Source: Rhododendron vialii
Taxonomy: Eukaryota > Streptophyta > Magnoliopsida > Ericales > Ericaceae
Direction of reading: 5' to 3'
DNA length: 64,000 bases
Assembly (NCBI RefSeq): GCF_030253575.1
Contig: NC_080558.1
Span: 9,930,001 to 9,994,000, forward strand
Position 1 is the stretch's first letter. Each line of letters opens with the position of its first letter. Below, piece after piece: positions 144 through 60,999 of this stretch. Under the pieces are notes generated by a model. It had not been told where the DNA came from, did not search any database, and worked only from the letters and a program-made list of their open reading frames with translations. The translations under genes and the position numbers were made by a program.

Positions 144-2777
144 TTATTTAAGGATTGTGTACAAATCCCAGACCTTAAAGTTCAGAAATCTTAGGTTTGG
201 TGATTGGAGCCTATTACAATATATTTCTAATCTGAGGGTACTCCATGGTCGAACCAAATCTGAAATAAGATAACTCCGGTCACCAATTGTGAACTCGCTT
301 TCGATAGAGATGACCTCGTTGTAGACGTCAGCCATGTGTAACTCATCAGTATCCATCTGGACGGAATTTTCCCATGCCTCTTGCATTTGCAATGAAAATT
401 GAAGGCTACCCAACACATCGTTCATAGAAGGGCGTCGGATGCCCTCTTTAACCACGCAACTTAGTGCTATGTTGACATAATGCCTAAAACATTCCGGAGC
501 TATTTTTCCGATTAGATATGGATCAATGACCTCATCGATAGTTCCCCTTTCGATGCATGCGTGGAACCATTTAAGTAACAGAACGTCATCCCTGTTTCGT
601 CCGAAAGAAATAGGGGTCTTAGCACACAATACTTCGAACAACATGACACCGAAAGCATACACGTCACTTTTCTCTGTCACTTTATGAGTGTGCAGGTACT
701 CAGGGTCCAAATATCCCATCGTGCCCATAACACTTGTTTCCACGCCCTCGGTTGTGATGCCAGTGGGTGTCTGTATGGACATTTCAAAAGCAGCAATTTT
801 TGCGATCCATTCGTCGTCCAAAAAAATGTTTGATGGTTTTATGTCACGGTGGACAAATTGTTGCTCTACGTTCGTATGGAGGTATTCGAGACCTCGTGCA
901 GTGTCGATGCAAATCTTAAGCCTCTTTTTCCAATGAAGTGGATCCTTACCGGTTTCGTGGAGATGACTTTTCAATGTCCCGTTTACCATGTAATCGTACA
1001 CGAGGATCAACTCATGCTTTTCTTCACAAAATCCTATCAAAGAGACTGTGTTAAGGTGACGAGTCAGAGATTGTACCCCAATCTCGGCACTAACTGGTCT
1101 GGCCAAGTGTGCTTCTCTCAAATTGTACCGTTTGATCATTACCACACGAGTTCCCCCCTCCATACATCCCTTGTATAAACTAAACCAATTGCCTCGGCTG
1201 ACCAAAAGACCGTCACTGAAATCATTAGTGACAGCGCGAATCGCAGAAAGCGAGAAACGGGGGTATACCGATCGAATAAGGTCATCTAAAATTGGTCCTC
1301 CAAAACCGTTTGAAAGGTCATCTAAAATTGGTCCTCCACCATCGTTTGAACCGTTGCCCTCCCCTGCTCTCCACCAACGATTCATACCTTTAGGCACAAT
1401 TTTTATGCCCCGAAACGCCTTTGAGATGGATCCCTGCAATCTTCCCTTACGCCCATGCGAAGCCAATGCAATTTCAAGGCTCTCCACTACTTCAGCCATT
1501 GTAGGCCTTTCCTTCGGTTGAGTATGTAAACACTTGTTGGCAAGTTCGGCAAAGAACTTGAGACTTTGTGGTGTTGTTTCTCCATTCAGAGAGGGATCAA
1601 TGATTCGGTCAATCTTTCCCTTTCTAATGTACATTTGCGCCCAAAGAATTAGACTAATTTGTTCCTCCTCGAGTCTTGTATCTATTGGTGGCCGACCACA
1701 CAAGACTTCCAACAACACCACCCCAAAAGCGTAAACATCAGATTTCTTGGTTAGTCGCTTGGTCAAGAAGTAATCTGGATCATAATACCCAAACGTTCCT
1801 TTGACATTTGTGGTAACATGGGTGGTTGTATGACTTGGAATGCGTTTAGATATGCCGAAATCAGAAACCTTTGCAACCCAATTCTCGTCCAACAAAATGT
1901 TTGTGCTTTTTACATCTCGGTGTATGATACCTTGTTCGGTACCATTATGAAGGTAGTCGAGTCCGAGTGCAGCATCAAGGCAAATGTGGAGCCTTCGCTC
2001 CCATGTTAGATGAGATCTGCTTCCACCGCTTTCTTCTTTACGTGTTTTGTAAAGATGATTGGCGAGTGTTCCACGAGCTATGTATTCATAAACAAGAATC
2101 ATCTCTCGATGCTCGTTGCAATAGCCGATGAGCGAAACGAGATGTGTGTGCCGGAGCTTTGAAAGCAACTTTACTTCTGTCCAAAACTCTTCTACACCTT
2201 GGTTGGACTTGGCATTCAACCGCTTTATGGCAGCAACGGTGGTTGTAGCACCTTCGCGGATGATTGCTTTGTATACCTTTCCGAATCCCCCAGTTCCAAT
2301 AACTAATGCTTCGTCAAAGTCATTAGTTGCTTTTAATATTTTGGATAGTGGAATAAAGGGACAAGACTCTTCCAATTGATCCATGCCACCATCAATTGCA
2401 ATCTCCCAGCTCTTCAAAGAGAGCGAGTCAGTGGACGAGGCCGCTCCCGATTGATCAAAGGGATTAGGAAACGGAAACGTGTGCGGAACGTCACCCAAGT
2501 TGGTGAACGAGGCTTCATCTTGATCAAAGGGATTAGGAAACACAAAGGGATTAGGAAACGGCGAGGCAGGCGGAATCTCACCCAAGTCAGTGGACGAGAC
2601 TCCTGCTTGATCAAAGGGATTAGGAAACAGTGAGGCATGAGGAATCTCACCCAAGTCAGTGGACGAGGCTCCCGCTTGATCAAAGGGATTCCTTAGATTA
2701 GGAATCGGCAATTTGTTAGCCGAAGCCGCACCACCAGAAATGCTATTGGGTAGTGGGCCTTGCACAAAAATCTCCAT
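144..2777 (-). CDS. Tandem kinase-pseudokinase protein, copy 1 (CrRLK1L-like, no ectodomain)
   Basis: Single open frame of 877 codons. I chose the Met at 2777 because the other copies start with the same Met-Glu-x-Phe-x-Gln block just after a conserved leader; the frame stays open to 2921, giving a possible longer form. The N-terminus (residues about 30-107) carries five NPF motifs in near-repeats of 23 residues. Kinase 1 spans about 155-440: loop GTGGFG, Lys in AAIK (about 185), HRDVKSTN (about 286), DFG (about 306) and a DPDY segment as in FERONIA-type kinases. Kinase 2 spans about 540-840: the loop is degraded (VSRGNWFSLYKG), Lys and HRD remain, but DFG is AFE, so it is probably a pseudokinase. 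It ends with RRPSMNDVL and QEAWENS, again CrRLK1L-like. No signal peptide or membrane span is seen, so it is probably cytoplasmic. The C-terminal tail after YLISDLV differs from the other copies. Likely signalling, perhaps immunity (inference). Confidence 0.85.
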   Translation of the reverse strand: MEIFVQGPLPNSISGGAASANKLPIPNLRNPFDQAGASSTDLGEIPHASLFPNPFDQAGVSSTDLGEIPPASPFPNPFVFPNPFDQDEASFTNLGDVPHTFPFPNPFDQSGAASSTDSLSLKSWEIAIDGGMDQLEESCPFIPLSKILKATNDFDEALVIGTGGFGKVYKAIIREGATTTVAAIKRLNAKSNQGVEEFWTEVKLLSKLRHTHLVSLIGYCNEHREMILVYEYIARGTLANHLYKTRKEESGGSRSHLTWERRLHICLDAALGLDYLHNGTEQGIIHRDVKSTNILLDENWVAKVSDFGISKRIPSHTTTHVTTNVKGTFGYYDPDYFLTKRLTKKSDVYAFGVVLLEVLCGRPPIDTRLEEEQISLILWAQMYIRKGKIDRIIDPSLNGETTPQSLKFFAELANKCLHTQPKERPTMAEVVESLEIALASHGRKGRLQGSISKAFRGIKIVPKGMNRWWRAGEGNGSNDGGGPILDDLSNGFGGPILDDLIRSVYPRFSLSAIRAVTNDFSDGLLVSRGNWFSLYKGCMEGGTRVVMIKRYNLREAHLARPVSAEIGVQSLTRHLNTVSLIGFCEEKHELILVYDYMVNGTLKSHLHETGKDPLHWKKRLKICIDTARGLEYLHTNVEQQFVHRDIKPSNIFLDDEWIAKIAAFEMSIQTPTGITTEGVETSVMGTMGYLDPEYLHTHKVTEKSDVYAFGVMLFEVLCAKTPISFGRNRDDVLLLKWFHACIERGTIDEVIDPYLIGKIAPECFRHYVNIALSCVVKEGIRRPSMNDVLGSLQFSLQMQEAWENSVQMDTDELHMADVYNEVISIESEFTIGDRSYLISDLVRPWSTLRLEIYCNRLQSPNLRFLNFKVWDLYTILK

Positions 2778-2987
2778 CTCTGAAGCTGAAATGGTCTGGA
2801 GGGATTTCTGAGAAACACTAGACAGTGGGGAATGAGTGATATTGATGAAACCACGTTGATGATAGTTGAGGAAGACTACTAGAACAGGACATGGTAGTGT
2901 GGTCGTCTCCAAGTGTCCCACACTTTGTACTCTGCAGCAACCTTCAACTAGTAAAAAAGCTCCCGATCAATTGAAGAGAAAGAACGT
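2778..2987 (-). promoter_or_regulatory. Leader / proximal upstream region of copy 1
   Basis: This roughly 210-base block directly upstream of the copy 1 start is repeated, with divergence, before copies 2, 5 and 6 and at several orphan sites (for example 7370-7600, 13370-13510 and 24131-24300). It is probably 5' UTR and core promoter. Its frame happens to be open back to 2921. A retroelement starts at 2988 and separates it from the rest of the conserved upstream DNA, which resumes at 5447. Confidence 0.5.
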
Positions 2988-3401
2988 TGTTGGAAATTGA
3001 CTAGAATTCCTAAATTGACTAGGATTCCTTTTCCTATTCGGTTTAGGTTTATTTAGTGTTTTCCTATAAATAGGGACCTTGGGGGTTTCTAGGGTTATGG
3101 TCTTTTGTTCAAGGGCTTAGATATTAGGGTTTTGTTTATGCTCTTAGGGTTCCACCAAGGGTTTGTGTCTCCCTTTTGGGTTCCACCAGAGATTTGTCCC
3201 TAGATATCTGTTTGGTGCTTCAATTAGAGTTACGGGTATAGCCGGCTCTTTGTTTCTCTCCCCGTTTATAGTGAATCCTCTTGCTCTTTTCCCCGTGGAG
3301 TACATTCTTGCTTTGTGCTTGAACGGAACCACGTATATCCTTGTGTTCTTGTTTATCGCTTGTTGATTTATTATATTCTCAATTTCGTGTTCGGCACAAC
3401 A
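2988..3401 (+). repeat. 5' LTR of the copia-type element
   Basis: It is 414 bases long with TG...CA ends, and carries the TATA-like stretch CCTATAAATAGGGACC near 3063. It is nearly identical to the 3' LTR. Confidence 0.92.
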
Positions 3402-3477
3402 AATGGTATCAGAGCTCCGGGTTTCAATCCGAGGCTTTTGTTTTCCGCTGTATATTGTGCAATTTGGTGATCGTTTC

Positions 3478-4936
3478 AATGGCGACTCGTTTCGAAATTG
3501 CGAAGTTCGATGGGCAGAGCACTAGCTTCAGTTTATGGCGTATTAAGATGAAGGCTTTGCTTGTTCAACAAGGATTACACAAGACTTTGTTGGGAAAATC
3601 GAAGAAGCCTGCTGATATGCAGGATAGTGTGTTTGAGGATCTCGATGCGAAGGCGCTCAGTTCGATTCAGTTGTGTTTAGCCGATGATGTGCTTCGCGAG
3701 GTCGGGGAGGAGGATACTACTGCCGGTATTTGGTTGAAGTTGGAAAGCATCTATATGACGAAGTCTCTTACCAATCGGTTGTATTTGAAGCAGCGCCTTT
3801 ATACGTTTCGTATGAGGGAAGGTACGCCCGTAAAAGACCATCTAGATGAGTTAAATCGAATTATTATGGATTTAAAAAATATTGATGTTGTGATTGATGA
3901 TGAAGATCAAGCCCTTATTGTGTTATGTTCTTTGCCTGCATCTTATGAGCATTTTGTTACTACCCTACTTTACGGGAGGGATACGATTTCCATGGAGGAC
4001 GTTAAGTCTAGTTTGTATTCGAAAGAATTGAGGAAAAAAGTATCCGGTGAGGGTGGTGATTTTGATGCTCAAGGTTGGATGGTGCAAGGAAGAACTTCTG
4101 AGAGGGATTATGGCAGTAGAGGGGTTTCTGGCTCTCGTTCCACAAATCAGGAAGTAAAGTGTTTTTACTGTAGAAAATACGGGCACATGGTGAAAAATTG
4201 TCCTAGGTTGAAAAATAAGGATAATTTTGAAGAGAAGGTTGTTGCTGGTATTGTTGAAGAAGATTTCGACGATTCACTTATGGTTCTTTCTGTGAGTGTC
4301 GGTGATGTCTGTTCGAATACCGAATGGATTCTGGACTCTGGATGTTCTTACCACATGTGTCCGAATAAAGATTGGTTCGATACTTATGAATCGGTCAGCA
4401 GTGGTTCAGTTCTTATGGGGAATAACATGCCCTGTAGAATTGTTGGGATTGGAACAGTTAAAGTCAGAATGCATGATGGGTTTGTGAGGACGTTGTTTGG
4501 TGTTCGACATATACTAGATTTGAAGAGGAACCTTATCTCTTTGGGTACTCTTGACTCTTTGGGTTGGAAGCATACCGCTGAAGGTGGAGTCTTGAGGGTT
4601 TTGAAGGGTGCTCGTGTTTTGATGAAGGGTCGAAAATCGAATAACCTCTATGTGCTTGATGGTAGTACGATTGTGGGTGCTACATCTTTGGGTTCTTCAT
4701 CGGTGAATTCGAGGTTGACTCAGTGTTGGGTTTTTAACTCTGTGGTAGAGTCAGTAATTAACTCCGTGTGGAGTTTGAGCAGATCTTCAAGTGCATTCGG
4801 GAGGGATGCGTTGGGTGGGAGGTGCCCGTTGGAAGATAAAGGCTCAATTTGGAGGCATGTGCGGCTGGGTTTCCTGAGTCACGTTTACAAGGTCAAGCAG
4901 GTGTGCTTGAGCCTTGCTCGTTTGTGCCGTTGGTGA
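3478..4936 (+). other. Gag-protease region of the copia-type element (fossil)
   Basis: An open reading region inside the retroelement. The N-terminal part has the Gag features of plant copia elements (the segment around LWRIKMKALL, then a UBN2-like helical region). A zinc knuckle of the form C-x2-C-x4-H-x4-C (CFYCRKYGHMVKNC) follows, then a protease-like LDSGCS motif. The segment beyond resembles the pre-integrase region of copia polyproteins. No further enzyme domains are recognisable. It is described as a fossil element, not a host gene. Confidence 0.8.
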
Positions 4937-5032
4937 TCGCCCCGTAGGGGGGCTTTTGGGGGAGATGAGCGATTAAAGGAGAGGATTGCCTATAGTGTTG
5001 AATTCGATGGAAGTCAAGTCAAGGTGGAGATT

Positions 5033-5446
5033 TGTTGAAAATTGACTAGAATTCCTAAATTGACTAGGATTCCTTTTCCTATTCGGTTTAGGTTTATTTA
5101 GTGTTTTCCTATAAATAGGGACCTTGGGGGTTCCTAGGGTTATGGTCTTTTGTTCAAGGGCTTAGATATTAGGGTTTTGTTTATGCTCTTAGGGTTCCAC
5201 CAAGGGTTTGTGTCTCCCTTTTGGGTTCCACCAGAGATTTGTCCCTAGATATCTGTTTGGTGCTTCAATTAGAGTTACGGGTATAGCCGGCTCTTTGTTT
5301 CTCTCCCCGTTTATAGTGAATCCTCTTGCTCTTTTCCCCGTGGAGTACATTCTTGCTTTGTGCTTGAACGGAACCACGTATATCCTTGTGTTCTTGTTTA
5401 TCGCTTGTTGATTTATTATATTCTCAATTTCGTGTTCGGCACAACA
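5033..5446 (+). repeat. 3' LTR of the copia-type element
   Basis: It is 414 bases long and directly repeats 2988-3401. It is followed by the target duplication AACGT. Confidence 0.92.
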
Positions 5447-6720: not shown

Positions 6721-6885
6721 GTTTTTTTATTTGCAAAGACAAATTCACACCTAAAATCTTTCTCTGATTGAATAATCAAAATGTATTGAGGAAATTAAAA
6801 AATTTATTTTCAAATATATTGCAAATAATAATATGAAATTCGATAAGCATCCCTTAGTTAAATATCTTTGTATCGGTTTTTTTCT

Positions 6886-7619: not shown

Positions 7620-8480
7620 TTGTTTTTGTTTTTATTTACTTTTAGGGTGTCATGGTAAGTTATGCACATCTCGATTAAATTTTAGAATATCAATTTGTAC
7701 ACTAAACAGAACCTGGGATTTCATAGAGAGCAAATTTCTAAGTCGGCTTGACAAGATAAACTTGCAGCAGTTTCTTGCACAAGACATTTAATATTTTCCG
7801 GTTTATTTCTATGTTTATAATTTGCTTGCTAGTTTTTACTTAAGGGGGAGTGTCAAGACTAAATGAATTATCTTGTAAGATAATGATTAAACCCTTTAGT
7901 GAACTTTTCTAGCAAGTGCAAGTGCTGTGGAGTCCCATAAACACTAGACAATGAGGGATGAGAGATCTTGGTCATGAAACCAACTGGAGTGTCAAAAATT
8001 CCAGTCAAAATGGAATTTACATGCAGCTGGAGAGCACACCGTCCATTCTTTTGACTCCTATGACTCGAACTAAGCAAAGCTCTTCATTAATTAATTGTGA
8101 AAAGCTTATCACGGACAAGGACTGAACGCTTGGTGGTACTCCCGACTTTTTCAAAACCACATATTTATGTGGGTTACACATATTTAATTAGGGACTCTAT
8201 GAGAACGTATGATTGTTTGTGGTGCCTCCAGACGACTGAATAATTTTACTTGAATAACAAACCCTTTTTGCGTACGTGATCTTTGCCAATTTGAGAACTC
8301 TAGAGCAAAGTTTGGATGTTTCGTAAATACTCTTACCGATACCGGATTAAGCTTATTTTTTTTAGGGACCATAAGCAAAGTATTTTAAACAAAATGAGCG
8401 ATTCCGATCTTTTTTTTGAGACCCAAAATGGGCCCAAAAAGAGGTTTGTACCCACTGGTACAGATTCTTTTATGTACCAG
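7620..8480. other. Duplicated spacer with a second leader scrap
   Basis: Bases 7840-7910 (AAGGGGGAGTGTCAAGACTAAATG and onward) match 13720-13780 and 24730-24800, so this is part of the tandem unit. Bases 7925-8000 repeat part of the kinase leader (CCATAAACACTAGACAATGAG). From 8330 to 8480 there are hairpin-like bases, including ACTGGTAC...GTACCAGT, at the broken 3' end of copy 2. I see no gene. Confidence 0.45.
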
Positions 8481-8492
8481 TAGACTTTCTGC

Positions 8493-10510
8493 TATTTTGC
8501 CGATTAGGTATGGATCAATGGCCTCATCCATGCATATGCGGAACCACTGAACTAACGAAAACTTATCCAGTGTTTCGGTTTCGGAAACAAGGTGTCTTGG
8601 CACACAATACTTTCAACACCACGACACCGAAAGCGTACACATCAGTTTTCTTTGTCACCTTACTAGTGTGCATGTACTCAGGGTCGAAATATTCCACCGA
8701 GCCAATATATCCCATCTCGTAAATAATACTTTTTTCCACGCCCTCGGTTGCCATGCTAGCAGGAATCAGTACGGAATGTTCAAAACCAGCAATTTTCACG
8801 ACCCATTTATCATCCAAAAGAACGTTTGATGAGTTTAGGTCACAGTGGACGAATTGTTGTACATTCGTATGGAGGTATTCGAGACCTCGCGCAGTGTCGA
8901 TGCAAATCTCAAGCCATTTTTTCCAAAGAAGTGGATCGTTATCGCTTCTGTGGAGATGACTTTTCAATGTCCCGTTTACCATGTAATCGTACACGAGGAT
9001 CAACTCATGCTTCTCTTCACAAAATCCTATCAAAGAGACTATGTTAGGGTGACGAGTCAGACATTGTACCCCAATCTCGGCACTAACTTGTCCGGCCAAG
9101 TTTGCCTTTCTCGATAGGTACCGTTTGATCATACCGCACGAGTTTCCCCCACCATACGTCCCTTGTACAAATTAAAGCAACTGCCTTGGCTGATCAAAAG
9201 GCCGACATTGAAATCATTAGTGGCAGCGCGAATCCCAGCAAGCGAGAAACGGGGGTATAACCGCACGAGTTTCCCCCACCATACGTCCTCCATTGTCATT
9301 TGATCCGTTTGCCTTCCCTGCTCTCCACCAACGATTCATACCTGGAAACGCCTTTGCAATAGTTCCCTGCGATCTTCCCTTACGCTCATGCGATAGCAAT
9401 GCAATCTCAAGGCTCTCCACTACTTCAGACATTGTAGGCCTTTCCTTTGGTTTAGTATGTAAACAATTTTTCGCAAGTTTGACAAACTACCTAAGACTAT
9501 GTCGTGTTGTTTCTCCATTAAGAGTGGGATCGATGATTTGGTCAAGCTTTCCCTTTTCGATGTACATTTTTTCCCAAAGAATTAGACTAATTTGCTCCTC
9601 CTCGAGTCTATCATCTAGAGGTGTTCGACCACACAAGACTTCCAACAGCACCACGCCAAAAGGCATACACATCAGATTTTCTAGTTACTCGATTGGTGTA
9701 GATATAATCTGGATCCCAGTATCCTCTTGTTGCTTTGACTTTTGTGCTAACATGGGTTGTTGTTTGGCTTGTAATGAGTTTGCATATCCCGAAATCAGAA
9801 AGTTTTGCTACCCAATTCTCGTCCAACAAAATGTTTGTGCTCTTCACATCTCGGTGTATGATATGTTGTTTAGTACCTGTGTGAAGATAGTCGAGTGCTC
9901 GTGCAACGCCAAGGCAAATGTTGAGCCTTTGAGCCCATTTTAGATGAGATATACTTTTACCGCTTTCTTCTCTACTTGATTTGTAAAGATGACTGGCAAG
10001 AGTCCCGCAAGCTATATATTCGTAAACAAGAATCATCTCCTGATTCTCATTGCAATAGCCAATGAGGGAAACGAGATTAATATGATGGAACTTTGAAAGC
10101 AACATTACCTCTTTCCAAAATTCTTCAGCACCTTGCTTGGACTGGGCATTCAACCTCTTTATGGCAACAACAGTGTTCGTAGCACCATCGTTAATGAATC
10201 CCTTGTATACCTTGCCGAATCCTCCAGTTCCAACGACTAATGCATCATCAAAGTCGTTTGTCGCTATTAGTACTTCATGCAGTGAAAAGCAATGACAAGA
10301 TCCCTTATCTTGAATCACGCCAGCATCGATCGGATTCTCCTTCTCAAAAGAGATTGGGGTGTCGGACAAGGCTTTCGCTTGATCAAAGTGATTTGGAGGC
10401 GGCAAGGCATGCGAAATCTCACCCATATTTTCCAGGAGGTGAATTTCGTGACTCGAATCCGCACCACTAGAAACGTTAATGGCAAGTGGGTATTGTGCAA
10501 AAGTCTCCAT
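8493..10510 (-). pseudogene. Tandem kinase-pseudokinase, copy 2 (pseudogene, 3' truncated)
   Basis: The start METFAQ lies at 10510. Kinase 1 is intact from there through the G-loop (GTGGFG), HRDVK and DFG to KSDVYAF. An extra T near 9660 then shifts the frame, with the rest of kinase 1 readable just downstream. A stop (TAG where the family has Tyr in SLKYF) lies near 9490. The linker holds a short duplicated copy of the GGTRAV segment at about 9255-9290. Kinase 2 (about 8563-9170) keeps the family pseudokinase form, with GFE for DFG and HCD for HRD. Another shift follows near 8570. Homology stops after IDPYLIGKIA near 8493, so the end of the C-lobe and the tail are missing. It cannot make the full protein. 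Confidence 0.85.
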
Positions 10511-17350: not shown

Positions 17351-19732
17351 CTAGTATCCTGATGAGGATATAGCACTCCATGGTGGAACCAAATCTGAAA
17401 TAAGATATTTCTGTCTACCGATTATGAACTCGCTTTCGCCAGAAATGATGTCATTGTAGGATCTAGGGCCGTCGGCCATATGTAACTCATCACCCATCTC
17501 GATGGAATTTTCCCAAGCCTCTTGCATTTTCAATGAACATTGAAGGCTGTCTAACACATCTTTCATAGAAGGGCGTCGGATCCCCTCATAAGGCAGGCAG
17601 CTTAGAGCTAGATTGACATAGTGCCTAAAACATTCAGGAGCGATTTTTCCGATAAGGTATGGATCAATCACCTCATCGATAGTTCCTATTCCGACGCATA
17701 CGCGGAACCAATCAACTAACCAAATCTCATTCCACCAAAGCTCATTCTTGTTTTGGTTGGAAGAAAAAGGGGTCTTAGCACATAATACTTCCAACAACAC
17801 GATGCCGAAAGCAAACACGTCAGTTTTCTTTGTCACTTTAGAAGTGCGCAGGTACTCAGGATCCAAATATGCATATGTGCCACACACAGCTGTTTCCACA
17901 CCCTTAGTTGCCTTGCTATTGTGAATCGGTAAGGACATTTCAAAAGCGGCAATTTTCGCGACCCATTCATTGTCCAAAAAAACGTTTGATGATGTTATGT
18001 CACGGTGGACGAATTGTTGCTCTTTGTTTGTATGGAGGTATTGGAGACCTTGTGCAATGCCGATGCAAATCTCAAGCCGCTTTTTCCAATGAAGTGGATC
18101 GTTATGGGTTTCGTGGAGACGACTTTCCAATGTCCCATTTACCATGTAATCGTACACGAGGATTAACTCATGCTTCTCTTTACAAAATCCCATCAAAGAG
18201 ACTATGTTAGCGTGACGAGGAAGTGATTGTACCCCAATCTCGGCACTAACTAGTCTGGCCGAGTGTGCCTCTCTCGCTTCGTACCGTTTGATCATAACTG
18301 CACGAGTTCCCCCCGCCATACATCCCTTGTATGACCTAAACCAACTATATCGGCCGATCAAAAGACCGTCATTGAAATCATTTGTGGCAGCCTGAATCTC
18401 CGGAAGTGAGAAACGGTGGTATACCGATTGGGTAAGGACATCTAAAATTGGTACTCCACCATTGTTTAAACCGTTGCTCTCCCCTGCTCTCAACCAACGA
18501 TTCATACCCATACCCATAGGCACAAGCTTTATGCCCTGAAACGCCTTTGCAATACTTCCCTGCGATCTTCCCTTACGCTCATGCAATACCAATGCAATCT
18601 CAAGGCTCTTCGCTACTTCAGACATTGTAGGCCTTTTCTTTGGTTCAGTATTTAAACAATTGTTCGCAAGTTTTGCAAAGTACTTAAGACTATGTGGTGT
18701 TGTTTCTCCATTAAGAGAGGGATCGATGATTCGGTCAAGCTTTCCCTTTTCGATGTACATTTTTGCCCAATTAATTAGACTAATTTGTTCCTCCTCGAGT
18801 CTATCATCTAACGGTGGCCGACCACACAAGACTTCCAACAACACGACTCCGAAGGCATACACATCAGATTTCCTAGTTACTTGACCAGTGATGAAATATT
18901 CTGGATCCCAATATCCTCTTGTTGCTTTTACTTTTGTGCTAACATGGGTTGTTGCTTGGCTTGTAATGAGTTTACATATCCCAAAATCAGAAATCTTTGC
19001 TACCAAATTCTCGTCCAACAAAATATTTGTGGTCTTCACATCTCGGTGTATGATACGTTGTTCGGTACCAGTATGAAGATAGTCGAGTCCTCGTGCAGCA
19101 CCAAAGCAAATGTTGAGCCTTTGAGCCCATGTTAGATGAGATATACTTTTACTACTTTCTTTTCTACTGGATTTGTAAAGATGATTGGCGAGATTTCCAA
19201 GTGCTATATATTCGTAAACAAGAATCATCTCATGATTTTCGTTGCAATAACCGATGAGCGAAACAAGATTAAAATGATGGAACTTTGAAAGCAATTTTAC
19301 CTCTGTCCAAAATTCTTCAGCTCCTTGGTTGGACTCGGCATTCAACCGCTTTATGGCAACAACGGTAGTTGAGGCACCATTACTGATGAACCCTTTATAT
19401 ACCTTACCGAATCCCCCAATCCCGATAACCAATGCATCGTCAAAAATGTTAGTAGCTACTTGTACCTCATCCAGTGTAAAGCGACGACAAGATCCCTCTG
19501 ACTGAATCACACCACCAACGATTCGATTCTGACTCTTTGAAATGGGCAACCGGTAGGACGAGGCTCCAGGTAGAGCAGGGTCCGAAGAGGGTAAGACGTC
19601 GGAAACCTTCGTCTCATTCCTAGAAAGACTATTTCCGTTACTCAAATCCGTACCACTAGTGACATTGGTGGCAAGGCATACTGGTTGACTAACTTGCCCT
19701 TCTTCGAAATTCTGGCTGTCTAAAGATGACAT
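17351..19732 (-). CDS. Tandem kinase-pseudokinase protein, copy 4 (CrRLK1L-like, no ectodomain)
   Basis: Open from Met at 19732 to the stop at 17351, 793 residues in one exon. The N-terminal 90 residues are Ser/Asn-rich, without signal peptide or membrane segment, and lack the NPF repeats of copy 1. Kinase 1 (about 95-385) has loop GIGGFG, AIK, HRDVKTTN and DFG with a DPEYF segment, so it should be active. Kinase 2 (about 465-760) has a degraded loop (IGRYSWFRSYKG), retains MIKRY and HRD, and carries AFE where DFG belongs: a pseudokinase. The end has RRPSMKDVL and QEAWENS, then YLISDLVPPW. It shares 3' flanks with copies 1 and 5, but its region upstream of 19733 is unlike the others, so its control may differ. 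Function is inferred: kinase-pseudokinase signalling, possibly defence. Confidence 0.88.
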   Translation of the reverse strand: MSSLDSQNFEEGQVSQPVCLATNVTSGTDLSNGNSLSRNETKVSDVLPSSDPALPGASSYRLPISKSQNRIVGGVIQSEGSCRRFTLDEVQVATNIFDDALVIGIGGFGKVYKGFISNGASTTVVAIKRLNAESNQGAEEFWTEVKLLSKFHHFNLVSLIGYCNENHEMILVYEYIALGNLANHLYKSSRKESSKSISHLTWAQRLNICFGAARGLDYLHTGTEQRIIHRDVKTTNILLDENLVAKISDFGICKLITSQATTHVSTKVKATRGYWDPEYFITGQVTRKSDVYAFGVVLLEVLCGRPPLDDRLEEEQISLINWAKMYIEKGKLDRIIDPSLNGETTPHSLKYFAKLANNCLNTEPKKRPTMSEVAKSLEIALVLHERKGRSQGSIAKAFQGIKLVPMGMGMNRWLRAGESNGLNNGGVPILDVLTQSVYHRFSLPEIQAATNDFNDGLLIGRYSWFRSYKGCMAGGTRAVMIKRYEAREAHSARLVSAEIGVQSLPRHANIVSLMGFCKEKHELILVYDYMVNGTLESRLHETHNDPLHWKKRLEICIGIAQGLQYLHTNKEQQFVHRDITSSNVFLDNEWVAKIAAFEMSLPIHNSKATKGVETAVCGTYAYLDPEYLRTSKVTKKTDVFAFGIVLLEVLCAKTPFSSNQNKNELWWNEIWLVDWFRVCVGIGTIDEVIDPYLIGKIAPECFRHYVNLALSCLPYEGIRRPSMKDVLDSLQCSLKMQEAWENSIEMGDELHMADGPRSYNDIISGESEFIIGRQKYLISDLVPPWSAISSSGY

Positions 19733-28574: not shown

Positions 28575-28807
28575 AAAAATGTTGATAATAGCCAAATACC
28601 CAGCACAACCAAGCAGTCCACCAGCAGATCTGAAAAAAACAAAAAAACAAGCAGTTCACCATAATAATTTATCAGGTAATTTGGAAAACTAGATACATAC
28701 AAATATTTGGATAAGAAATTCAGCCACATCGTTTTAGGATTGTGTGAAAATCCCAGACCCTAAAGTGCAGAAATATTAGGTTCGGTGATTTGGTCCTATT
28801 ACAATTT
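28575..28807 (-). other. 3' flank of copy 5
   Basis: Matches 1-230 and 17110-17340, including CCACCAGCAGATCTG and TTATCAGGTAATTTGG. It is the shared downstream region of this family. Confidence 0.65.
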
Positions 28808-31074
28808 CTACTCTGAGGATGACGAGTATCCCAAGGAGGATATAGGAGTCGATGGTCGAACCAAATTTGAAATAAGATAGGTCTGTCCACCAATTGTGAA
28901 CTCGCTTTGGACAGAGATGATGTCATTGTTGAATCCGGAGACGTGGGCCATATGTAACTCATCACCCATCCAATAGGAATTTTCCCAAGCCTCTTGCATT
29001 TGCAATAAAGATTGAAGGCCACGCAACACATCGTTCATAGAAGGGCGTCGGATGCCCCCTTCAACCACACAACTTAGTGCTATATTGACATAATGCCTCA
29101 ATGACCCCATTGATAGTTCCTCTTTCGATGCATGCGCGGAACCAATCAAGCAACAAAACCTCATCCCTGTTGGGAGAAAAAGGGGTCTTAGCACACAATA
29201 CTTCCATCAACATGACACCGAAAGCATACACGCCAGTTTTATTTGTCACTTTACAATTGTGCAGGTACTCAGGGTCCAAATATCCCTTGGTGCCAAAAAC
29301 TCCCATCATGCCAATGATATTTGTTTCCATGCCCTCGGTTGCCATGCTAGTGGGAATAGGTACGGAAAAGTCAAAAGTGGCAACTTTCGCAGCACATTTA
29401 TCATCCAAAAGTACGTTCGATGGGTTTAGGTCACAGAGGACGAATTGTTGCTCTTCATTTGTATGGAGGTATTCGAGAGCTCGTGAAGTGTTGATGCAAA
29501 TCTCAAGCCGTTTTTTCCAAAGAAGTGGATCGTTATCGCTTCCGTGGAGATGACTTTTCAATGTCCCGTTTCCCATGTAGTCGTACACGAGGATCAACTC
29601 ATCCTTCTCTTCACAAAATCCTATCAAAGAGACTGTGTTAGGGTGATGAGTCAGAGATTGTACCTCAATCTCGGCAATAAATTGTCCGACCAAGTTTGCC
29701 TCTCTCAATACATATCTTTTAATCATAACCGCATGAGTTCCCCTCACCATATATCCCTTGTACAAACTAAACCAAATGCCTTGGCTTATCAAGAGTCCGT
29801 CATTGAAATCATTAGTGGCAGCGCGAATCTCAACAAGCGAGAAACGGGTAAGGTCGCCTATAATTGGTCATCCACCGTCATTTGAACCATTGTCCTTCCC
29901 TGCTCTCCACCAACAATTCATACCCTGAAACGCCTTTGCAATGGTTCCCTGCGATCTTCGCTTACGCTCATGCAATTCCAATGCAATCTCAAGGCTCTCC
30001 ACTATTTCAGACATTGTAGGCCTTTCCTTTGGTTTAGTATGTAAACAATTGTTCGCAAGTTTGACAAAGTACTTCAGACTATGTTGTGTTGTTTCTCCAT
30101 TAAGAGAGGGATCGATAATTCGGTCGAGCTTTCCCTTTTCGATGTACATTTTCGCCCAAAGAATTAGACTAATTTGCTCCTCCTCGAGTCTTGTATCTAT
30201 TGGTGGTCGACCATACAAGACTTCCAACAACACCACGCCAAAGGCATACACATCAGATTTCCTGGTTACTCTGTTGGTGTAGACATAATCTGGATCCCAA
30301 TATCCTCGCGTTGCTTTGACTTTTGTGCTAACATGGGTTGTTGTTTGGCTTGTAATGCAGAAATCAGAAACCTTTGCTACCCAATTCTCGTCCAACAAAA
30401 TGTTTGTGCTCTTCACATCTTGGTGTATGATATGTTGTTCAGTACCTGTATGAAGATAGTTGAGTCCACGTGCTGCACCAAGGCAAATGTTGAGCCTTTG
30501 AGTCCATGTTAGATGTGAGATAATTTTACCACTTTATTCTCTACTTGATTTGTAAAGATGACTGGCGAGAGTCCCATGAGCTATGTATTCGTAAAGAAGA
30601 ATCATCTCTGGATTCTCGTTGCGATAGCCGATGAGTGAAACGAGATTAGTATGATGGAACTTTGAAAGCAACTTTACCTCTGTCCAAAATTCTTCAGCAC
30701 CTTGCTTGGACTCGGCATTCAACCTCTTTATGGCAACAACAGTGGTTGTAGCACCATCGTATATTAAGCCTTGATATACCTTACCGAATCCCCCAATTAC
30801 AACAACATCATCAAAGTTGTAACTCGCTACGAGTACTTCATCCAGTGAAAAGCAACGACAAGATCCCTCTAGTTGAATCATGCCACCATCTATTGGGTTC
30901 TTCATCTCTAAAGAGAAGCTGTTGGTGGACGAGGCTTCTGCATGATCGAAGGGATTCGGAGACGGCAAGGCACGTGAAACGTCACCCATATTTTTCAGGA
31001 GGTGATTTTTGTGACTCGAATCCGCACCCACTAGGAACGTTAAAGGTAAGCGGGCCTTGTGCAAAATTCTACAT
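28808..31074 (-). pseudogene. Tandem kinase-pseudokinase, copy 5 (pseudogene)
   Basis: The expected start at 31074 is followed at once by a stop (ATG TAG), and a one-base difference follows in the N-terminal region. Kinase 1 has a shortened loop (VIGGFG, two residues lost), a stop at 30534-30536 after SSRE, and HQD in place of HRD. The linker contains a TGA near 29867. Kinase 2 is readable from about 29860 to 29100 with FVLCDL in place of FVHRDI and ATFDF in place of the DFG region, as in copy 6. A deletion of about 43 bases near 29100 removes the DPYLIGKIAPECF segment and shifts the frame. The C-terminus (28808-29100) is again well preserved, ending YSSSSE. One NPF motif (SPNPFDHAE) is present at the N-terminus. 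It is not functional as a dual kinase. Confidence 0.87.
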
Positions 31075-32500
31075 CTTCTGAAATGGTCCAGAGAATCTCT
31101 AGGAAACACTAGACAATGAGGAATGAGAGATATTGGCGAAACCGCCTTGATGATATTGACGGATATAACTAAAACAGGACAAGGGGATTTGGTCAACTTC
31201 AAGTAGCCCCCACCGTGCGCTATGCAACCTTAATTAAAGCTTGATAAAGTCAACCCACGACTTGGGAAAGTTATCGTCTGTGGGACTTGGTCAAAAAAAT
31301 ACCCTCAAATTAGAATCCGGGAATTCTATAGCACGCTGTTGATGTTGTTTTGTTGCCAATATTAAAGGACTTGCCGCGCCAACATCTTTCTTCCTCGCCT
31401 CGCTATTCAAAACAATTCAGTGGAATAAATTAGGGATCCAAGAAATTATATTCCCGTGCATCGAATTTGTAATTAAACAATCAATGTGAAATCATAAGAA
31501 AATTAATTCTAACAATGTAAACAAACTAACTTTCTAATTAATAAACAGGACCAGTTTGTATATTTCGTACACAGAAGCAATGTGAGTGCTACAAATTCCA
31601 ATTCCCCTTCTAGTATCCTAATACGCTCTCGCTGTACTTAGGAGAAAACTACATCAGATAGCTATACCACTTGTGGAATTTCAGTATAACCTCATTGTAT
31701 ACAGCAAACTGGTTCTAATTGATACATTCATATCATATTGCGGATGACTAAACTGTTGAGATGTGAAGAAAATTCAAGTGGGAGGTCGCAGTAAAATTGG
31801 CCCGTGCAGAAATCAAATTGGCCCGGGCCATTTTTTGCTTTTCGCCGGGCAGCCCCAAATTTGGCCCTGGTGGTCGGACACGAGAAAACATGCGGATTTT
31901 AGTGTTTTAAGGGTTTTTTGTGTATTGGCTTGGTTGTAACTATAAAAGCAAAGCTAGGGCTGTCTCCTATTGTAACTCTTACATACTTTCATCATAGTGA
32001 AACACCCTAACACCCCGTGAATGTACGATATATTAAGTAATCAGCTTAACTCGAAACCACGTAAATATCTGAGTCCTGTTATTTTCTTGCTTTAGATTGT
32101 TTTTTGTTCTTGGTATGTTCTTTGATTGTGTGAGTTTGCTTGCGGGTTTGGACGTTCGAATTCCCAACATTTATCTCTATAAGTTGCAAGTGGATCTACT
32201 CCTATGCATTTGACAGGGTTCAAATTAACTTCACTAACTACAACTAACAATGCTTACTTTTGCCGAGACAAAAAAGGGAAAAAAAAACTTCATCTCTATA
32301 AGTTACTGTAAACACGGGGTCCCATTAGCTGACTAAGCTCAAAAAACTCAGAGATGGCCCTGAGCTTTCACCAATCCCATTTGTACAAACACCAATATCT
32401 GATAATAAGCTGGACTGGTGTTGACCTAAAATGTTCCTCAATCGATATCAACAGGGTTTTGAAAAAACAACACTTGGAATGCTGGAATGTGATTTTTTAA
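31075..32500. repeat. Upstream block of copy 5
   Basis: Similar to 10511-12080 and 61000-62680: the leader, the GGGAATTCTATAGCACGCTG segment, the TTAGGGATCCAAGAAATTATA segment and the CACGGGGTCCCATTAGCTGAC segment. It is promoter and spacer DNA, interrupted by an LTR-like insert at 31754-32169. Confidence 0.65.
31754..32169. mobile_element. Solo-LTR-like insert in the copy 5 upstream block
   Basis: A 416-base segment beginning TGTTGAGATG and ending TTCCCAACA is absent from the paralogous site (GCGGATAACTTTATCTC near 11835). TG...CA ends, a TATA-like ACTATAAAAGC near 31940 and the length fit a solo LTR. The short flanks do not form a clean direct repeat, so the exact ends are uncertain. Confidence 0.55.
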
Positions 32501-53285: not shown

Positions 53286-53288
<3 letters not shown>

Positions 53289-54265: not shown

Positions 54266-54810
54266 CTTAGTTGCAGAAACCTTCAACTATGCCCATGTTT
54301 CTTCGACGGAAATGCGTTTCCGCGTTCCCGTCGAAGGAAACTCCAAGAAACTCGTCCCAATGATAACGGAAACTCGTTCCTTACCTATACGGGAACTTAC
54401 ACCCAAAAAACGGTTGAGACTTACGATTCAAGCTCCAATTGGTACATTTAAAGTTGTTTTGTTCTTGTTGGTGTGCACATCTGATATTAACCTTCTAGAG
54501 TCATACTAATGCCTTTAACTTTTAAACCTACTTAATATGCACAAGAGCTCTATTGTATAATCATGTGCTACAATAAAAATGTTGAAATATAACTAGAAAC
54601 TTATAATTTTAATAACAATATTTTATGCTTTAGAATAATATTTTTATATTGACATTTAACAATATAAAATTTCAAAATATAATTATAATTTTAATAATTT
54701 TTCCTAACCACTTCCAATGGCGCTCCCACACTTCTATGATCATCCACACCCCCGCTCCCGCTCCCGCTCCCGCTCCCGCTCCCGCTCCCGCTCCTGCTTC
54801 GTGTAACTAA
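54266..54810. mobile_element. Small non-autonomous element inside the hAT transposase exon
   Basis: Exactly flanked by the 9-base direct repeat GGTGAAAAT (54257-54265 and 54811-54819). The ends (c)TTAGTTGCAGAAAC and GCTTCGTGTAACTAA are imperfect inverted repeats. A 9-base duplication suggests the Mutator-like superfamily. The interior has a hairpin (GTTTCTTCGACGG...CCGTCGAAGGAAAC, 54297-54341), AT-rich DNA and a hexanucleotide repeat. Its removal would rejoin the transposase reading. Confidence 0.75.
54750..54794 (+). repeat. (CCGCTC)n hexanucleotide repeat
   Basis: About seven units of CCGCTC near the right end of the nested element. Confidence 0.9.
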
Positions 54811-57796
54811 GGTGAAAATTAGCGGGGTTTACAAGGCCATTTGCAAGTATTGCGGAACAAAATTTCTGGAGAAACAAGGAATGGAACTTCGCATTTGAAC
54901 GAATACTATTTAAGGAAACACCAAAAGAAGGATAACATGAGACAACAAGTTCTAACAAACAATTTCATGAACAAAGACCGTCCTCCGCTACTAACTTCAT
55001 ATAGTTTTGATCATGAGACGGCACGGAAAGAACTTGCAAGTGCCATAATCATGCATGAGTATCCCCTTTCAATTGTGGACCATGTTGGATTTAGGAGGTA
55101 TTCAAATGCTCTTCAACCTTTATTTAAGGTGCCGTGTAGGAACACAATGAAAGCTGAAATATTTAAGATTTATGAGTACCGGAAGGGGAAGACAATGAGT
55201 TTGGTGGTGAGTAATGCAAGTAGATTAGCGATCACAACAAACATGTGGACTTCGAGTAATCAAAAGAAAGGCTTCATGACTGTCACAGCACACTTTATTG
55301 ATGATTCTTGGACTTTGCAAAGTCGCATTTTGAGGTATTTCTAACTTATATCGCTATATTTATTCCTTTATGCTATGTAAATCTTCATTTTTCCATTTTT
55401 AACTAAATATCAACGTTGCATATTAGGTTCATATATGTGCCATATCCACATACAAAAGAAGTTCTATGTGACCAATTGTTGAATTGTTTGATAGATTGGA
55501 ACATTGATAGAAAGATTTCAAGTATAACGGTTGATAATTGCTCTACCAATGATGCCATGATTGATCTTTTGTGGGACAAACTTTATAGTACGTCACTCAT
55601 GTTAGGTGGGAATTTGTTTCATATGCGTTGTTGTGCGCACATTCTTAATCTTATTGTTAAAGATGGGTTGGATGTTATCAAGGTGGGTACTAAGAAAATT
55701 CGGGATGACGTAGCTTATTGGACAGCATCACAAAAAAGAGAGGAAAAATTTGAAGAAACAGTCCGCCAATTGAATGTGACTAGTACTAAGAAATTAGGAC
55801 TTGATTGTGCGACTAGGTGGAATTCAACATTCTTGATGCTTCAAACAGCCCTACTTTATAAGGATGTGTTCATTCGCTTAAGCAAACGGGATGCTCAATA
55901 TAATTCCTTATTGAGTGAACGTGAATGGGGGTTTGCTAGAGATGTTTGTCAAAAGTTGAAATTTTTTTTTAAGGTGACAGAGTTGTTTTCTGGAACTAAA
56001 TACTCTACTACTAATCAATGCTTTCCAAATATACTTGAGATTAGACTTGAATTGAGAGATTGGCTCCGTTCTGAGAATTAGATGATTAGGGAAATGACCA
56101 AAAGAATGGTGGAAAAATTTGATAAGTATTGGTCTATGGTACATGGTGTTGTGGGGGTTTCTATTGTGTTGGATCCTAGGTATAAGATAAACGTGTTGGA
56201 GTTCTACTTTAAATTATTGTTTCCAACAACTTACAAGGAAGAAGTTGAGAAAGTTCATGCACTTTGTTATAAATTGCTTAAGGAGTATCAATGTCCTAGT
56301 TCAATGATGGAGAGTATTCGTGACTCTTCTTTCCAATCAAGTTCCATTGATGAAGATTCACTATCGAAGTATGATGTCTACATGCTTCGGGAGTCGAAGA
56401 GAAGTAGGACAATCGATACTGCAAAATTGGAGTTGGATCATCATTTGTCGAAAGTTGTCTTGCCAAAATCAGCAGGATTTGATGTCTTGAATTAGTGGAA
56501 ATCACATCAACCCAAGTATCCAATTTTGCAAGCCATGGCTAGGTATCTGTTAGCTATTCCGGTATCGACGGTTACTTCTGAGTCAGCATTTAGCACGAGT
56601 GGTAGGTTGGTGAGTCCACGTCGCAGTAGACTTCATCCCGATACGATGGAAGCCTTGATGTGTGCTCAAAGTTGGTTGTGGGCTGCCGAAATTAAAGGTA
56701 ATGAACTTAATATCTTGCATTTTTCTACTTTAGTAAACTCAAACTAGTACTTATGAATTTTTTACTTTATATTTGTTAGGTGAATCAACATCAGGGTACG
56801 CCACTATATTAGATGATGCTGAAACGAGGGATTCGTGCATGACTCGTGAGGTAATTGGCATTTGTCTTACGTCTCTCGTGCGTGACTCGTGAGGTAATTG
56901 ATATTAATTCACTTTTTCTGCCCTTCAATTTAACAGATATGAACTCAGCAAATGGAAGTTGGCATTTCAAGATGGAAATCAGAATTGATCCTATTGTTTT
57001 GTTTTTCCATCTCTTAATTCTACAAATGGAACTTTGTATTATTTCAAGATTTGTGATGTAGTGAGATTTGGTTGGCTGGACTGATTGGTGTGCATGTGGT
57101 GACTGGAGTCACTGGACTGACTGAACTTTGTATTATTTTTACTTTGCTTTGTAGTTGTTTTGTGGATTGATTGGCAGCATGTGGTAAGTGTTTTGTTGTG
57201 AATGTTGGTAGCTATTGTGTATTGAGAATGTTGGGGTATAAAATTGTCCACTGATGACTGGAGCCACTGGAACTCTATCTATTTCCATGGGGTATAAAAT
57301 GGTTGCGTGGAGCCTGCTACCGATGAATATGATCATGTGAGAGAGCCAGAGATTTTCTGATGCTTAGCATGCATGCTTCAGCTTTTTCATTCCTTGTACA
57401 AATCCAGTCCAGCTAGCAGAACTTATTCTATTTGTGGTATTTGTTAGCATTACATTTTAGCTTTAGTATCATAAAAATTTGGATACTAATTCCTCATAGG
57501 GGTGGGAATGAAATCTGATCCAGGATCAGTTTTTCTGCTTGATCAGTTTCTTTCTTTAACTTAAACTTGGCAGGATCAATTTTTTTGCTTGATTAAAAGG
57601 ATCAGTATTTTTGCTTCATTTCGGTTATCCGTTCGGTTCGGTTATTACCCGATATCCGTTTGGTTCGGTTATGGTTACCTAGTTCCCTCCCCGTTCGGTT
57701 ATCGGGGCGGATATGGGTGGTACTTTGGTTTCAGGTATCGGGTACGGAATACCCAATATCCGCCCCGTTTGCCCCAATGCCATCCCTAACCCATAC

Positions 57797-58266: not shown

Positions 58267-58658
58267 ACTGTGAATCACCACAAAAAAAAAACTAAGTAGA
58301 TTTTAGAATTAGTTTTAAAATTTGTAATATTATATTTGCCGACTAAATACTTAGTTGGTAAAAGCTGTAATATGCCAACAATAAATGTAACATTTTCTGA
58401 CTAAATAATTAGTTGGTAATTAACTAAACATTTGCCGACTAAATAATTTTGCCGACTGAATACTTTGTCGACAATAATTCAAATTAGCTGACTAAATAAT
58501 TAGTCGGGAAAAACCAACATATGCCGACTAAATTTTTTTTAGTCAGTAATTACTTTTGCTGACCTTAATTACCCAACTAAATCGCCGACCAAAGTTTTTA
58601 TTCGGGAAATACTATTGCCGACTAAATTTCTACATTTTGTCGACTAAAAGGGTAATGT
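58267..58658. mobile_element. CACTA-type element or terminus with GCCGACTAAAT subterminal repeats
   Basis: The right end read on the minus strand is ACTACAAGACATTACCC, close to the plant CACTA terminus CACTACAAGA. The left end CACCACAAAAAA is similar. The interior repeats (TT)GCCGACTAAATA and its complement about ten times. It is non-coding and about 390 bases if both ends belong together. It abuts the broken C-terminus of copy 6. Confidence 0.6.
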
Positions 58659-58663
58659 CTTGT

Positions 58664-60999
58664 AGTTAAATTTGAAATAAGATAGCTCTGTCCACCGATT
58701 GTGAACTCGCTTTCGACAGAGATGACGTCGTTGTATGATTGGGGGACGTCGGCTGTATGCAACTGATCACCCATCTGGAAGGAATTTTCCCAAGCCTCTT
58801 GCATTTCCACTAAAGATAGAAGGCCACGCAACACATCGTCCATAGAAGGGCGTCGGATCCCCTCGGAAGCCAGGCAGCTTAGTGCTATATTGACATAGTG
58901 CCGAAAACATTCAGGAGCGATTTCTCCGATAAGGTATGGATCAATGACTGCATCGATTTCTGCACTTCTGATGCACATGTAGAACCAATCAAGTAACGAA
59001 GCATTGTACGGCCATTCTCGGGAAGAAGGGGTCCTAGCACACAATACTTCCAACAACACAAGACCAAAAGCATACACGCCAGTTTTTTCTGTCACTTTAA
59101 AATTGTACTGGTACTCAGGGTCCAAAAATTCCTTTGTGCCAAAAAATCCCATCATGCCAATAATATTTGTTTCCACACCTTCGGTTGCCATGCGAGTGGG
59201 TATACGTACGAAAAAATCAAAAGTGGCAAGTTTTGCGACATATTTATCATCAAAAAGTACGTTTGATGGGTTTAGGTCACAAAGGACAAATTGTTGCTCT
59301 TCATTCAAATGGAGGTATTCGAGAGCTTGTGCAGTGTCGATGCAAATCTCAAGCCACTTTTTCCAAAGAAGTGGATAGTTATCACTTCCGTGGAGAAGAC
59401 TTTTCAGTGTCCCGTTTCCCATGTAGTCGTACACAAGGATCGACTCATCCTTCTCTTCGCAATATCCTATCAAAGAGACTATGTTAGGGTGATGAGTCAG
59501 AGATTGTACCTCAATCTCGGCAATAACTTGTCCGACCAAGTTTGGCTCCCTCAACACGTATCGTTTGATCATAACCGCATGAGTTCCCCTCACCATACAT
59601 CCCTTGTACAAACTAAACCAAATGCCTTGGCTGATCAAAAGATCGTCATTGAAATCATTAGTGGCAGCGTGAATCTCAGCAAGCGAGAAACGGGGATTTG
59701 AACCATTCCCTGCTTTCCACCAATGATTCGGACCTTTAGGCACAAACTTTTGGCCCTGAAACGCCTTTGCAATAGTTCCCAGTGATCTTCCCCTACGCTC
59801 ATGCGATACCAATGCAATCTCAAGGCTCTTCACTACTTCAGACATTGTAGGCCTTTCCTTTGGTTTAAGTTGTAAACAATTGTTCGCAAGTTTGGCAAAG
59901 TACTTAAGACTATGTGGTGTAGTTTCTCCATTAAGAGAGGGATCGATGATTCGGTCAAGCATTCCCTTTTCGATGAACAATTTTGCCCAATTAATTAGAC
60001 TAATTTGCTCGTCCTCAAGTCTATCATCTAACGGTGGCCGACCACACAAGACTTCCAACAACACCACGCCAAAGGCATACACATCAGATTTCCTAGTTAC
60101 TTGACCAGTGATCAAATATTCTGGATCCCAATATCCTCATGTTGCTTTGACTTTTGTGCTAACATGGGTTGTTGCTTGGCTTGTAATGAGTTTACATAAA
60201 CCGAAATCAGAAACCTTTGCTGCCAATTTCTCATCCAACAAAATGTTTGTGCTCTTCACATCTCGGTGTATGATACGTTGTTCGGTACCTGTATGAAGAT
60301 AGTCGAGTCCTCGTGCAACACCAAGGCAAATTTTGAGCCTTTGAGCCCACTGTAGATGTGATATACTTCTACCGCTTTCTTCTCTACTTGATTTGTAAAG
60401 ATGACTAGCAAGAGTCCCACGAGCTATATATTCGTAAACAAGAATTAATCATCTCCTGATTCTCATTGCAAAAGCTGATGAGCGAAATGAGATTAGTATG
60501 ATGGAACTTTGAAAGCAATTTTACCTCTGACCAAAATTCTTCAGCACCTTGGTTGGACTGGGCATTCAACCTCTTTATGGCAACAACGGTGTTCGTAGCA
60601 CCATCGTTAATGAACCTCTTATATACCTTGCCGAATCCTCCAGTTCCAAGAACTAATTCATCATCAAAGTCGTTTGTCGCTATTAGTACTTCATGCAATG
60701 AAAAGCAATGACAAGATCCCTTAACTTGAATCACGCCACCGTATGTCGCTATTAGTACTTCATGCAATGAAAAGCAATGACAAGATCCCTTAACTTGAAT
60801 CACGCCACCATTGATTGGATTCTCCTTCTCAAAAGAGATCGGAGTGTTGGACGAGGCTTCTGCTTTATCAAAGTGATTTGGAGACGGCAAGGCATGCGAA
60901 ATCTCATCCATATTTTCCAGGAGGTGAATTTAGCGACTCGAATCCGGACCACTAGAAACGTTAATGGCAAGCAGGCCGGTCTTGTGCAAAATTCTCCAT
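58664..60999 (-). pseudogene. Tandem kinase-pseudokinase, copy 6 (pseudogene)
   Basis: The start MENFAQ at 60999 is followed within 13 codons by a frame change (a 4-base CCGG insertion) and later a stop near 60930. A 69-base tandem duplication (60676-60813) repeats 23 residues just before kinase 1. A 4-base insertion after QEMI, near 60446, shifts the frame. The HRDVK and DFG region is well preserved, then TGA replaces the Arg of KATRGYWD at 60137-60139. From 60115 to 58664 the frame is open: end of kinase 1, linker, and kinase 2 with FVLCDL for HRD and ATFDF for DFG, as in copy 5. The last family residues are YLISNL; the tail that follows (TTRHYPFSRQ) is read from the CACTA terminus. Confidence 0.87.

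What the first reader, a model, noticed from the sequence alone, without database searches (positions are those of the whole stretch)
144..60999. Cluster of CrRLK1L-derived kinase-pseudokinase genes
Five copies (two open, three broken) share an unusual plan: a canonical FERONIA-type kinase followed by a second FERONIA-type domain without DFG, with no ectodomain or membrane span. Cereal tandem kinase proteins such as those of Yr15 and Rpg1 have a kinase-pseudokinase plan and confer resistance. Copy number change, decay and transposon load here look like a rapidly evolving defence locus. The immune role is inference; the domain plan is read directly.
Basis: partly seen in the sequence, partly recalled or inferred. 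Interest (0 to 1): 0.85.

Follow-up and report, generated by a model that had tools for sequence, protein, structure and literature searches.

The report
FERONIA-type tandem kinase-pseudokinase gene cluster
A plant chromosome carries a row of related genes, some broken, that fuse an apparently working kinase to a dead copy of a kinase; similar cereal proteins give disease resistance, so these are candidate immune genes of a kind already reported in sunflower and lettuce.

Summary
The window carries five head-to-tail copies on the - strand (two open, 877 and 793 aa; three broken) of a single-frame gene for a kinase plus a second kinase domain without DFG, with no ectodomain or membrane span. 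Both domains are CrRLK1L/FERONIA type; none of 67 Malectin_like matches lies on this contig. The array continues outside: an open sixth copy just to the right, a broken one about 42 kb left. Elsewhere in the genome are at least six ectodomain-free tandem genes on C10 (five open), one more on C2, and three malectin tandem-kinase loci (two in one open frame). All 16 pseudokinase domains in the tree form one clade (99.4/100), so the plan predates the cluster and perhaps arose in a membrane receptor. In c1, c3 and c6 kinase 1 is constrained (omega 0.36); the pseudokinase changes faster (0.69, CI 0.52-0.93). Closest known: ectodomain-free two-kinase CrRLK1L-1 proteins of sunflower and lettuce (PMC8866362) and cereal tandem kinase proteins. 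The immune role stays inference; no expression or pathogen data were available. New member of a known kind.

The parts
147..2777 (-). Copy c1: open 877-aa kinase-pseudokinase gene
   Evidence: Open frame; two Pfam kinase stretches, no malectin
1452..2366 (-). c1 kinase 1 (residues 138-442); G loop, AAIK, HRD, DFG intact
   Evidence: HMM boundaries, residue table
354..1259 (-). c1 kinase 2, pseudokinase (residues 507-808): degenerate G loop, VMIK, HRD, DFG replaced by AAF
2456..2690 (-). c1 N-terminal tandem repeats with five NPF motifs
   Evidence: Tandem repeats; motif positions
8472..10486 (-). Copy c2: broken kinase-pseudokinase gene
   Evidence: tblastn pieces in two frames with stops
17354..19732 (-). 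Copy c3: open 793-aa kinase-pseudokinase gene
   Evidence: Open frame; Pfam
18563..19492 (-). c3 kinase 1 (residues 81-390), catalytic motifs kept
   Evidence: best solved-structure match FERONIA kinase
17498..18418 (-). c3 kinase 2, pseudokinase (residues 439-745): AAF in place of DFG
   Evidence: best solved-structure match FERONIA kinase
28732..31211 (-). Copy c4: broken (two in-frame stops, a frame switch)
58625..60971 (-). Copy c5: broken (frame switch and stops upstream of the 504-aa open frame; 69-base tandem duplication)
2988..5446 (+). Young LTR element (copia-like by eye) with one gag/protease-like open frame (by eye), about 210 bases upstream of the c1 start codon; LTRs 415 of 417 identical; flanked by the same five bases, AACGT

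Best explanation
This is a cluster of intracellular tandem kinase proteins derived from the CrRLK1L (FERONIA) receptor family, with copies gained and lost. Shown by sequence: the open copies encode kinase 1 with its catalytic motifs, joined to a pseudokinase without DFG; malectin receptors in the same genome carry relatives of the same two domains in the same order. Inferred: the pseudokinase arose as a tandem duplicate of the cytoplasmic kinase of a CrRLK1L receptor, and the ectodomain and membrane span were later lost. Most likely working (inference, by analogy with cereal tandem kinases): kinase 1 is the signalling half; the faster-changing pseudokinase, a mimic of a FERONIA-type kinase, is the sensing or regulatory half that an effector aimed at CrRLK1L kinases would bind, releasing kinase 1 to signal, possibly through a helper NLR.
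For: Plan and residues. Both c3 domains match FERONIA best among solved structures (K1 6.3e-99, K2 8.9e-79). Tree of 47 domains: 16 of 16 K2 in one clade, 99.4/100; K1-type plus K2 together 99.7/100. Tandem receptors: C8 1284-aa and C10 1349-aa open frames with Malectin_like, a membrane-span-like stretch and two kinases; a third C10 locus has the same plan but with a stop in the malectin part, its 1005-aa frame holding the end of Malectin_like, the span-like stretch and two kinases. Selection, c1/c3/c6: K1 omega 0.36 (CI 0.27-0.48), K2 0.69 (0.52-0.93). Under drift by substitution alone a K2 frame stays free of stops with P 0.06-0.09 at 0.08 substitutions per site, 0.014-0.034 at 0.115 and 0.007-0.015 at 0.15. 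Effector binding and, for some, helper-NLR dependence of cereal tandem kinases: passages of PMC12830362. Dual-kinase CrRLK1L-1 genes among the candidates at a sunflower broomrape-resistance locus: passages of PMC8866362.
Against: No expression, pathogen or interaction data. Relaxed constraint explains K2 omega 0.69 as well as sensing does, and at the lowest divergence simulated an open K2 frame is not very surprising (P 0.06-0.09). No NB-ARC match within 1.9 Mb on C2 among those scored, but only 124 of 589 candidates were scored. A separate origin of K2 beside FERONIA is not firmly rejected (AU p 0.081, or 0.048 for the wider group). Many relatives have a single K1-type kinase and no second domain in their frame (six of them in the tree), so loss or late fusion of K2 must be assumed for some. 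A wholly non-immune role is open.
Confidence: 0.5

Rival explanations
1. Intracellular regulators of CrRLK1L signalling: the tandem protein competes with or scaffolds FERONIA-type kinases in cell-wall or growth signalling, without an immune sensing role.
For: Both domains are FERONIA-like; the same tandem plan sits in malectin receptors; the five open C10 relatives are constrained in both domains (omega K1 0.22, K2 0.31), which fits a conserved regulator.
Against: The C2 cluster has broken copies and a K2 with about twice the omega of K1, unusual for a conserved growth regulator (general knowledge).
Confidence: 0.27
2. A decaying family: copies are largely relics after duplication, the open ones by chance or by recent youth.
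For: Three of five window copies are broken; c0 to the left is broken too; K2 omega 0.69; a young LTR element sits about 210 bases upstream of c1.
Against: Three complete open copies (c1, c3, c6); K1 omega 0.36; 0.7% of 2000 codon bootstraps of K2 reach omega 1; open K2 frames rather unlikely under drift.
Confidence: 0.18
3. A misread receptor gene: the kinases are exons of a spliced malectin receptor.
For: Family relatives are receptors; three malectin tandem-kinase loci exist elsewhere.
Against: 0 of 67 Malectin_like matches on contig C2; c1 and c3 are single open frames with their own N-terminal start and no span-like stretch before the kinases. No transcript was seen.
Confidence: 0.03

Closest known systems
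Two-kinase CrRLK1L-1 proteins of sunflower (OrDeb2 interval) and lettuce, PMC8866362 (passages read)
   Same: CrRLK1L-1 kinase homology in both halves, one active site and one ATP site, both in the left domain, no membrane span or ectodomain, clustered
   Different: [quoted passage not shown]
Cereal tandem kinase proteins, Yr15/WTK1 and Rpg1 (PMC6170490; passages and one section read)
   Same: Kinase-pseudokinase plan, no other domains or membrane span
   Different: WTK1 is a WAK/RLCK_8 fusion; the families named there for the 92 proteins do not include CrRLK1L; resistance is proven there, not here
FERONIA and other CrRLK1L receptors
   Same: Sequence of both kinase domains
   Different: One kinase, with malectin ectodomain and membrane span; no Malectin_like match on C2
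Pto (tomato cytoplasmic kinase)
   Same: Kinase-only relative, next after FERONIA among solved structures (the chain is labelled 'Protein kinase' there, the name Pto is recalled)
   Different: Single kinase; its immune role is stated in PMC8866362

Membership tests
Plant tandem kinase-pseudokinase proteins (TKP, PMC6170490) | Two kinase domains in tandem in one protein | tested here: met
   Pfam two stretches in c1 and c3, HMM boundaries
Plant tandem kinase-pseudokinase proteins (TKP, PMC6170490) | One domain keeps key residues, the other is divergent at them | tested here: met
   K1 intact; K2 glycine loop and DFG lost in c1 and c3, though HRD and the VAIK Lys are kept there
Plant tandem kinase-pseudokinase proteins (TKP, PMC6170490) | No further conserved domains or membrane span | tested here: met
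   Only kinase-type Pfam families in c1 and c3; hydropathy
Plant tandem kinase-pseudokinase proteins (TKP, PMC6170490) | Disease resistance (shown for some members only) | not testable with these tools
   No phenotype data
CrRLK1L family | Kinase domain falls in the CrRLK1L clade | tested here: met
   Best match FERONIA, other RLK kinases lower; tree. The outgroup was Pto only, so distant RLK families were not in the tree
CrRLK1L family | Malectin-like ectodomain and membrane span | tested here: not met
   0 of 67 Malectin_like matches on C2; no span-like stretch before the kinases. Hence a derivative, not a receptor of this family
Two-kinase CrRLK1L-1 proteins of sunflower/lettuce | Orthology to those genes | not tested
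   Their sequences are not held here; architecture compared by paper text only

The most novel reading that the evidence does not exclude
The genome preserves the route by which a tandem kinase immune-type protein arose: a FERONIA-family receptor doubled its cytoplasmic kinase, the second copy lost catalysis inside a membrane receptor (malectin, span, kinase, pseudokinase), and cytosolic kinase-pseudokinase proteins then shed the ectodomain and expanded, with a fast-changing pseudokinase and an N-terminal NPF-repeat module shared with a group of genes whose second kinase is RLCK-like.
Probability: 0.45. Interest if true: 0.65.

Novelty: new member of a known kind. Interest (0 to 1): 0.45.

Why it matters
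Tandem kinase proteins are a recently recognised class of plant resistance proteins, proven in cereals. A genome holding receptor, tandem-receptor and cytosolic tandem forms of one kinase lineage would let the order of duplication, loss of catalysis and loss of the ectodomain be tested directly, and it names concrete genes (c1, c3, c6) for tests of function.

Tried and rejected
Rejected: hidden malectin exon. Of no use: two AlphaFold jobs with window sequences only, mean pLDDT 31.2 and 31.9, so no fold search was run. Linked NLR: none close among 124 of 589 scored candidates, not conclusive. Number of ectodomain losses: K1 groups the C10 cytosolic genes with the malectin genes of C8 and C10 (100/100), K2 groups them with the C2 genes (85.7/64; UFBoot 88 with one more domain); unresolved. 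A chimeric origin of c1 was considered: its N-terminal part resembles a C1 gene and not c3 or c6, but common retention from an ancestor would look the same, since by eye c2, c4 and c5 also have N-termini of the C1 kind, so it is not claimed.

Literature: nine searches listed no paper that by title or start of abstract describes malectin receptors with a kinase-pseudokinase tail; passages of five papers were read and one section. [quoted passage not shown] The plant-wide survey of tandem kinase proteins (Reveguk et al. 2025, seen only as a citation) is not held, so it may describe these genes.

Rows dropped before counts: the RLCK-like fragment of C1_150 was left out of the tree; K1 pieces of c4 and c5, the C10 copy with a stop and many single-kinase hits were not put in it. 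In the K2 residue counts c0 gives no data from HRD on, c2 none for the glycine loop, and C10_MTK1 does not align cleanly at DFG.

Full report
Observation. The window is C2:9930001-9994000 of a 532.6-Mb, 13-contig plant assembly. Five copies of one gene lie head to tail on the - strand. c1 (147-2777, 877 aa) and c3 (17354-19732, 793 aa) are open; c2, c4 and c5 have frame switches and stops. Pfam finds only kinase-type families, with two stretches in c1 and in c3.

Extent. With c3 kinase 2 (K2) and kinase 1 (K1) as queries, the assembly shows a sixth open copy just right of the window (c6, C2:9995399-9997372, 868-aa frame) and a copy about 42 kb left (c0, C2:9886048-9887963) whose frame ends inside K2 and continues in another frame. 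Counts from these searches are lower bounds: 130 of 2181 and 128 of 2731 first-look candidates were scored.

Ectodomain. The Malectin_like model gives 67 matches in the assembly, none on C2. c1 and c3 have no span-like stretch before the kinases; the one stretch over the cut-off in c3 (639-657) lies inside K2.

Catalytic residues. All 22 K1-type domains tabulated (tandem and single-kinase genes together) keep the VAIK-type Lys and the Asp of HRD and DFG; one, C10_992, reads QRD. Of 15 K2 domains with data, none reads DFG; one (C10_MTK2) has DLM, and one (C10_MTK1) does not align cleanly there. None of 15 keeps the glycine loop. HRD is whole in 2 of 15 (c1, c3) and its Asp is kept in 7 of 15; the VAIK Lys is kept in 9 of 16. 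So K2 is a pseudokinase by sequence; ATP binding cannot be excluded, least of all in c1 and c3.

Origin. Both c3 domains match the FERONIA kinase best among solved structures, the Pto chains next. In a maximum-likelihood tree of 47 domains all 16 K2 form one clade (99.4/100), the 22 K1-type domains form another with weak support (50.9/85), and the two together 99.7/100 within CrRLK1L. Placing K2 with FERONIA instead is not firmly rejected (AU p 0.081; wider group 0.048). The outgroup was Pto alone and the K2 branches are long.

Related forms in the genome. Two open frames encode a malectin-like ectodomain, a span-like stretch and two kinases (C8 1284 aa, L051; C10 1349 aa, L048); a third C10 locus (L050) has the same plan with a stop in the malectin part. 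C10 also has six near-complete ectodomain-free tandem genes, five open and one with a stop, and a more decayed seventh. C2_985 (L041) is another tandem gene with a very divergent K2. Many relatives are single K1-type kinases of about 400 aa; six of these and one malectin gene with one kinase (C10_992) are in the tree and fall among the K1 domains. On C1, three genes with a K1 79-80% identical to c3 K1 share an open frame with the start of an RLCK-VII-like kinase; one of the three was read (L027), the other two are judged by matching frame lengths and positions, and the RLCK-VII label is recalled. So the kinase-pseudokinase plan is older than the cluster, K1 also occurs alone, and it has another partner on C1.

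Selection. For c1, c3 and c6: K1 omega 0.36 (95% CI 0.27-0.48), K2 0.69 (0.52-0.93; 0.7% of 2000 codon bootstraps reach 1). Forty-codon windows of K2 starting at 21 and 41 have dN above dS (0.44/0.29, 0.35/0.24). For the five open C10 genes: K1 0.22, K2 0.31. K2 is thus under weak constraint in this cluster and clear constraint on C10. Relaxation and selection for change cannot be told apart here; pairs that include the truncated c0 K2 reach 0.88-1.21 on about 126 codons.

N-terminal module. In the first part of the alignment (windows starting at 31-181) c1 is 73-87% identical in DNA to the C1 gene but only 28-66% to c3 and c6; through the rest of K1 all three are about equally close, and K2 is shared with c3 and c6. 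K1 and K2 of c1-c3 also differ in dS (0.43 and 0.23). Exchange between copies or retention of an old N-terminus would both fit; no formal recombination test was made. The c1 N-terminus has five NPF motifs in tandem repeats; NPF as an EH-domain ligand in endocytosis is recalled, and its meaning here is a guess.

Function. By analogy with cereal tandem kinases, which bind effectors and in some cases need a helper NLR (passages of PMC12830362), the protein may sense effectors that target CrRLK1L kinases. No result here tests this. Two-kinase CrRLK1L-1 genes without ectodomain are among nine candidate genes in a sunflower broomrape-resistance interval (abstract start, passages of PMC8866362), which shows that the kind is known and places it near, not at, proven resistance.

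Verdict. Real, well described, and wider than the window; a new member of a known kind. The tandem malectin receptors are the most interesting part and lie outside the window.

Noticed in passing
G000:C8:7339321-7342782 (L051), C10:5984260-5987778 (L048), C10:6023824-6027369 (L050): Malectin-like receptors with a membrane-span-like stretch and two intracellular kinase domains, the second degenerate (the third locus has a stop in its malectin part).
   Followed up: yes
G000:C1:14930185-15030906 (L027 holds one): Three genes appear to fuse a CrRLK1L-type kinase in frame with the start of an RLCK-VII-like kinase; one was read, and whether later exons complete the second kinase was not seen.
   Followed up: partly
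2988-5446: Very young LTR element (2 differences in 417 LTR bases, flanking repeat AACGT), copia-like by eye with one gag/protease-like frame, about 210 bases upstream of c1; it may disturb the c1 promoter.
   Followed up: partly
2456-2690: Five NPF motifs in tandem repeats at the c1 N-terminus; the one C1 fusion gene that was read (L027) has similar repeats with NPF motifs.
   Followed up: partly
53985-56492: Pieces that look like a decayed hAT-type transposase gene (label by eye, not searched).
   Followed up: no
L059 (G000:C2:11464801-11465800): A K2-type pseudokinase frame about 1.5 kb downstream of a separate K1-type gene, grouping with C2_985 K2 (UFBoot 100): a split tandem gene or a second gene that lost K1.
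   Followed up: partly
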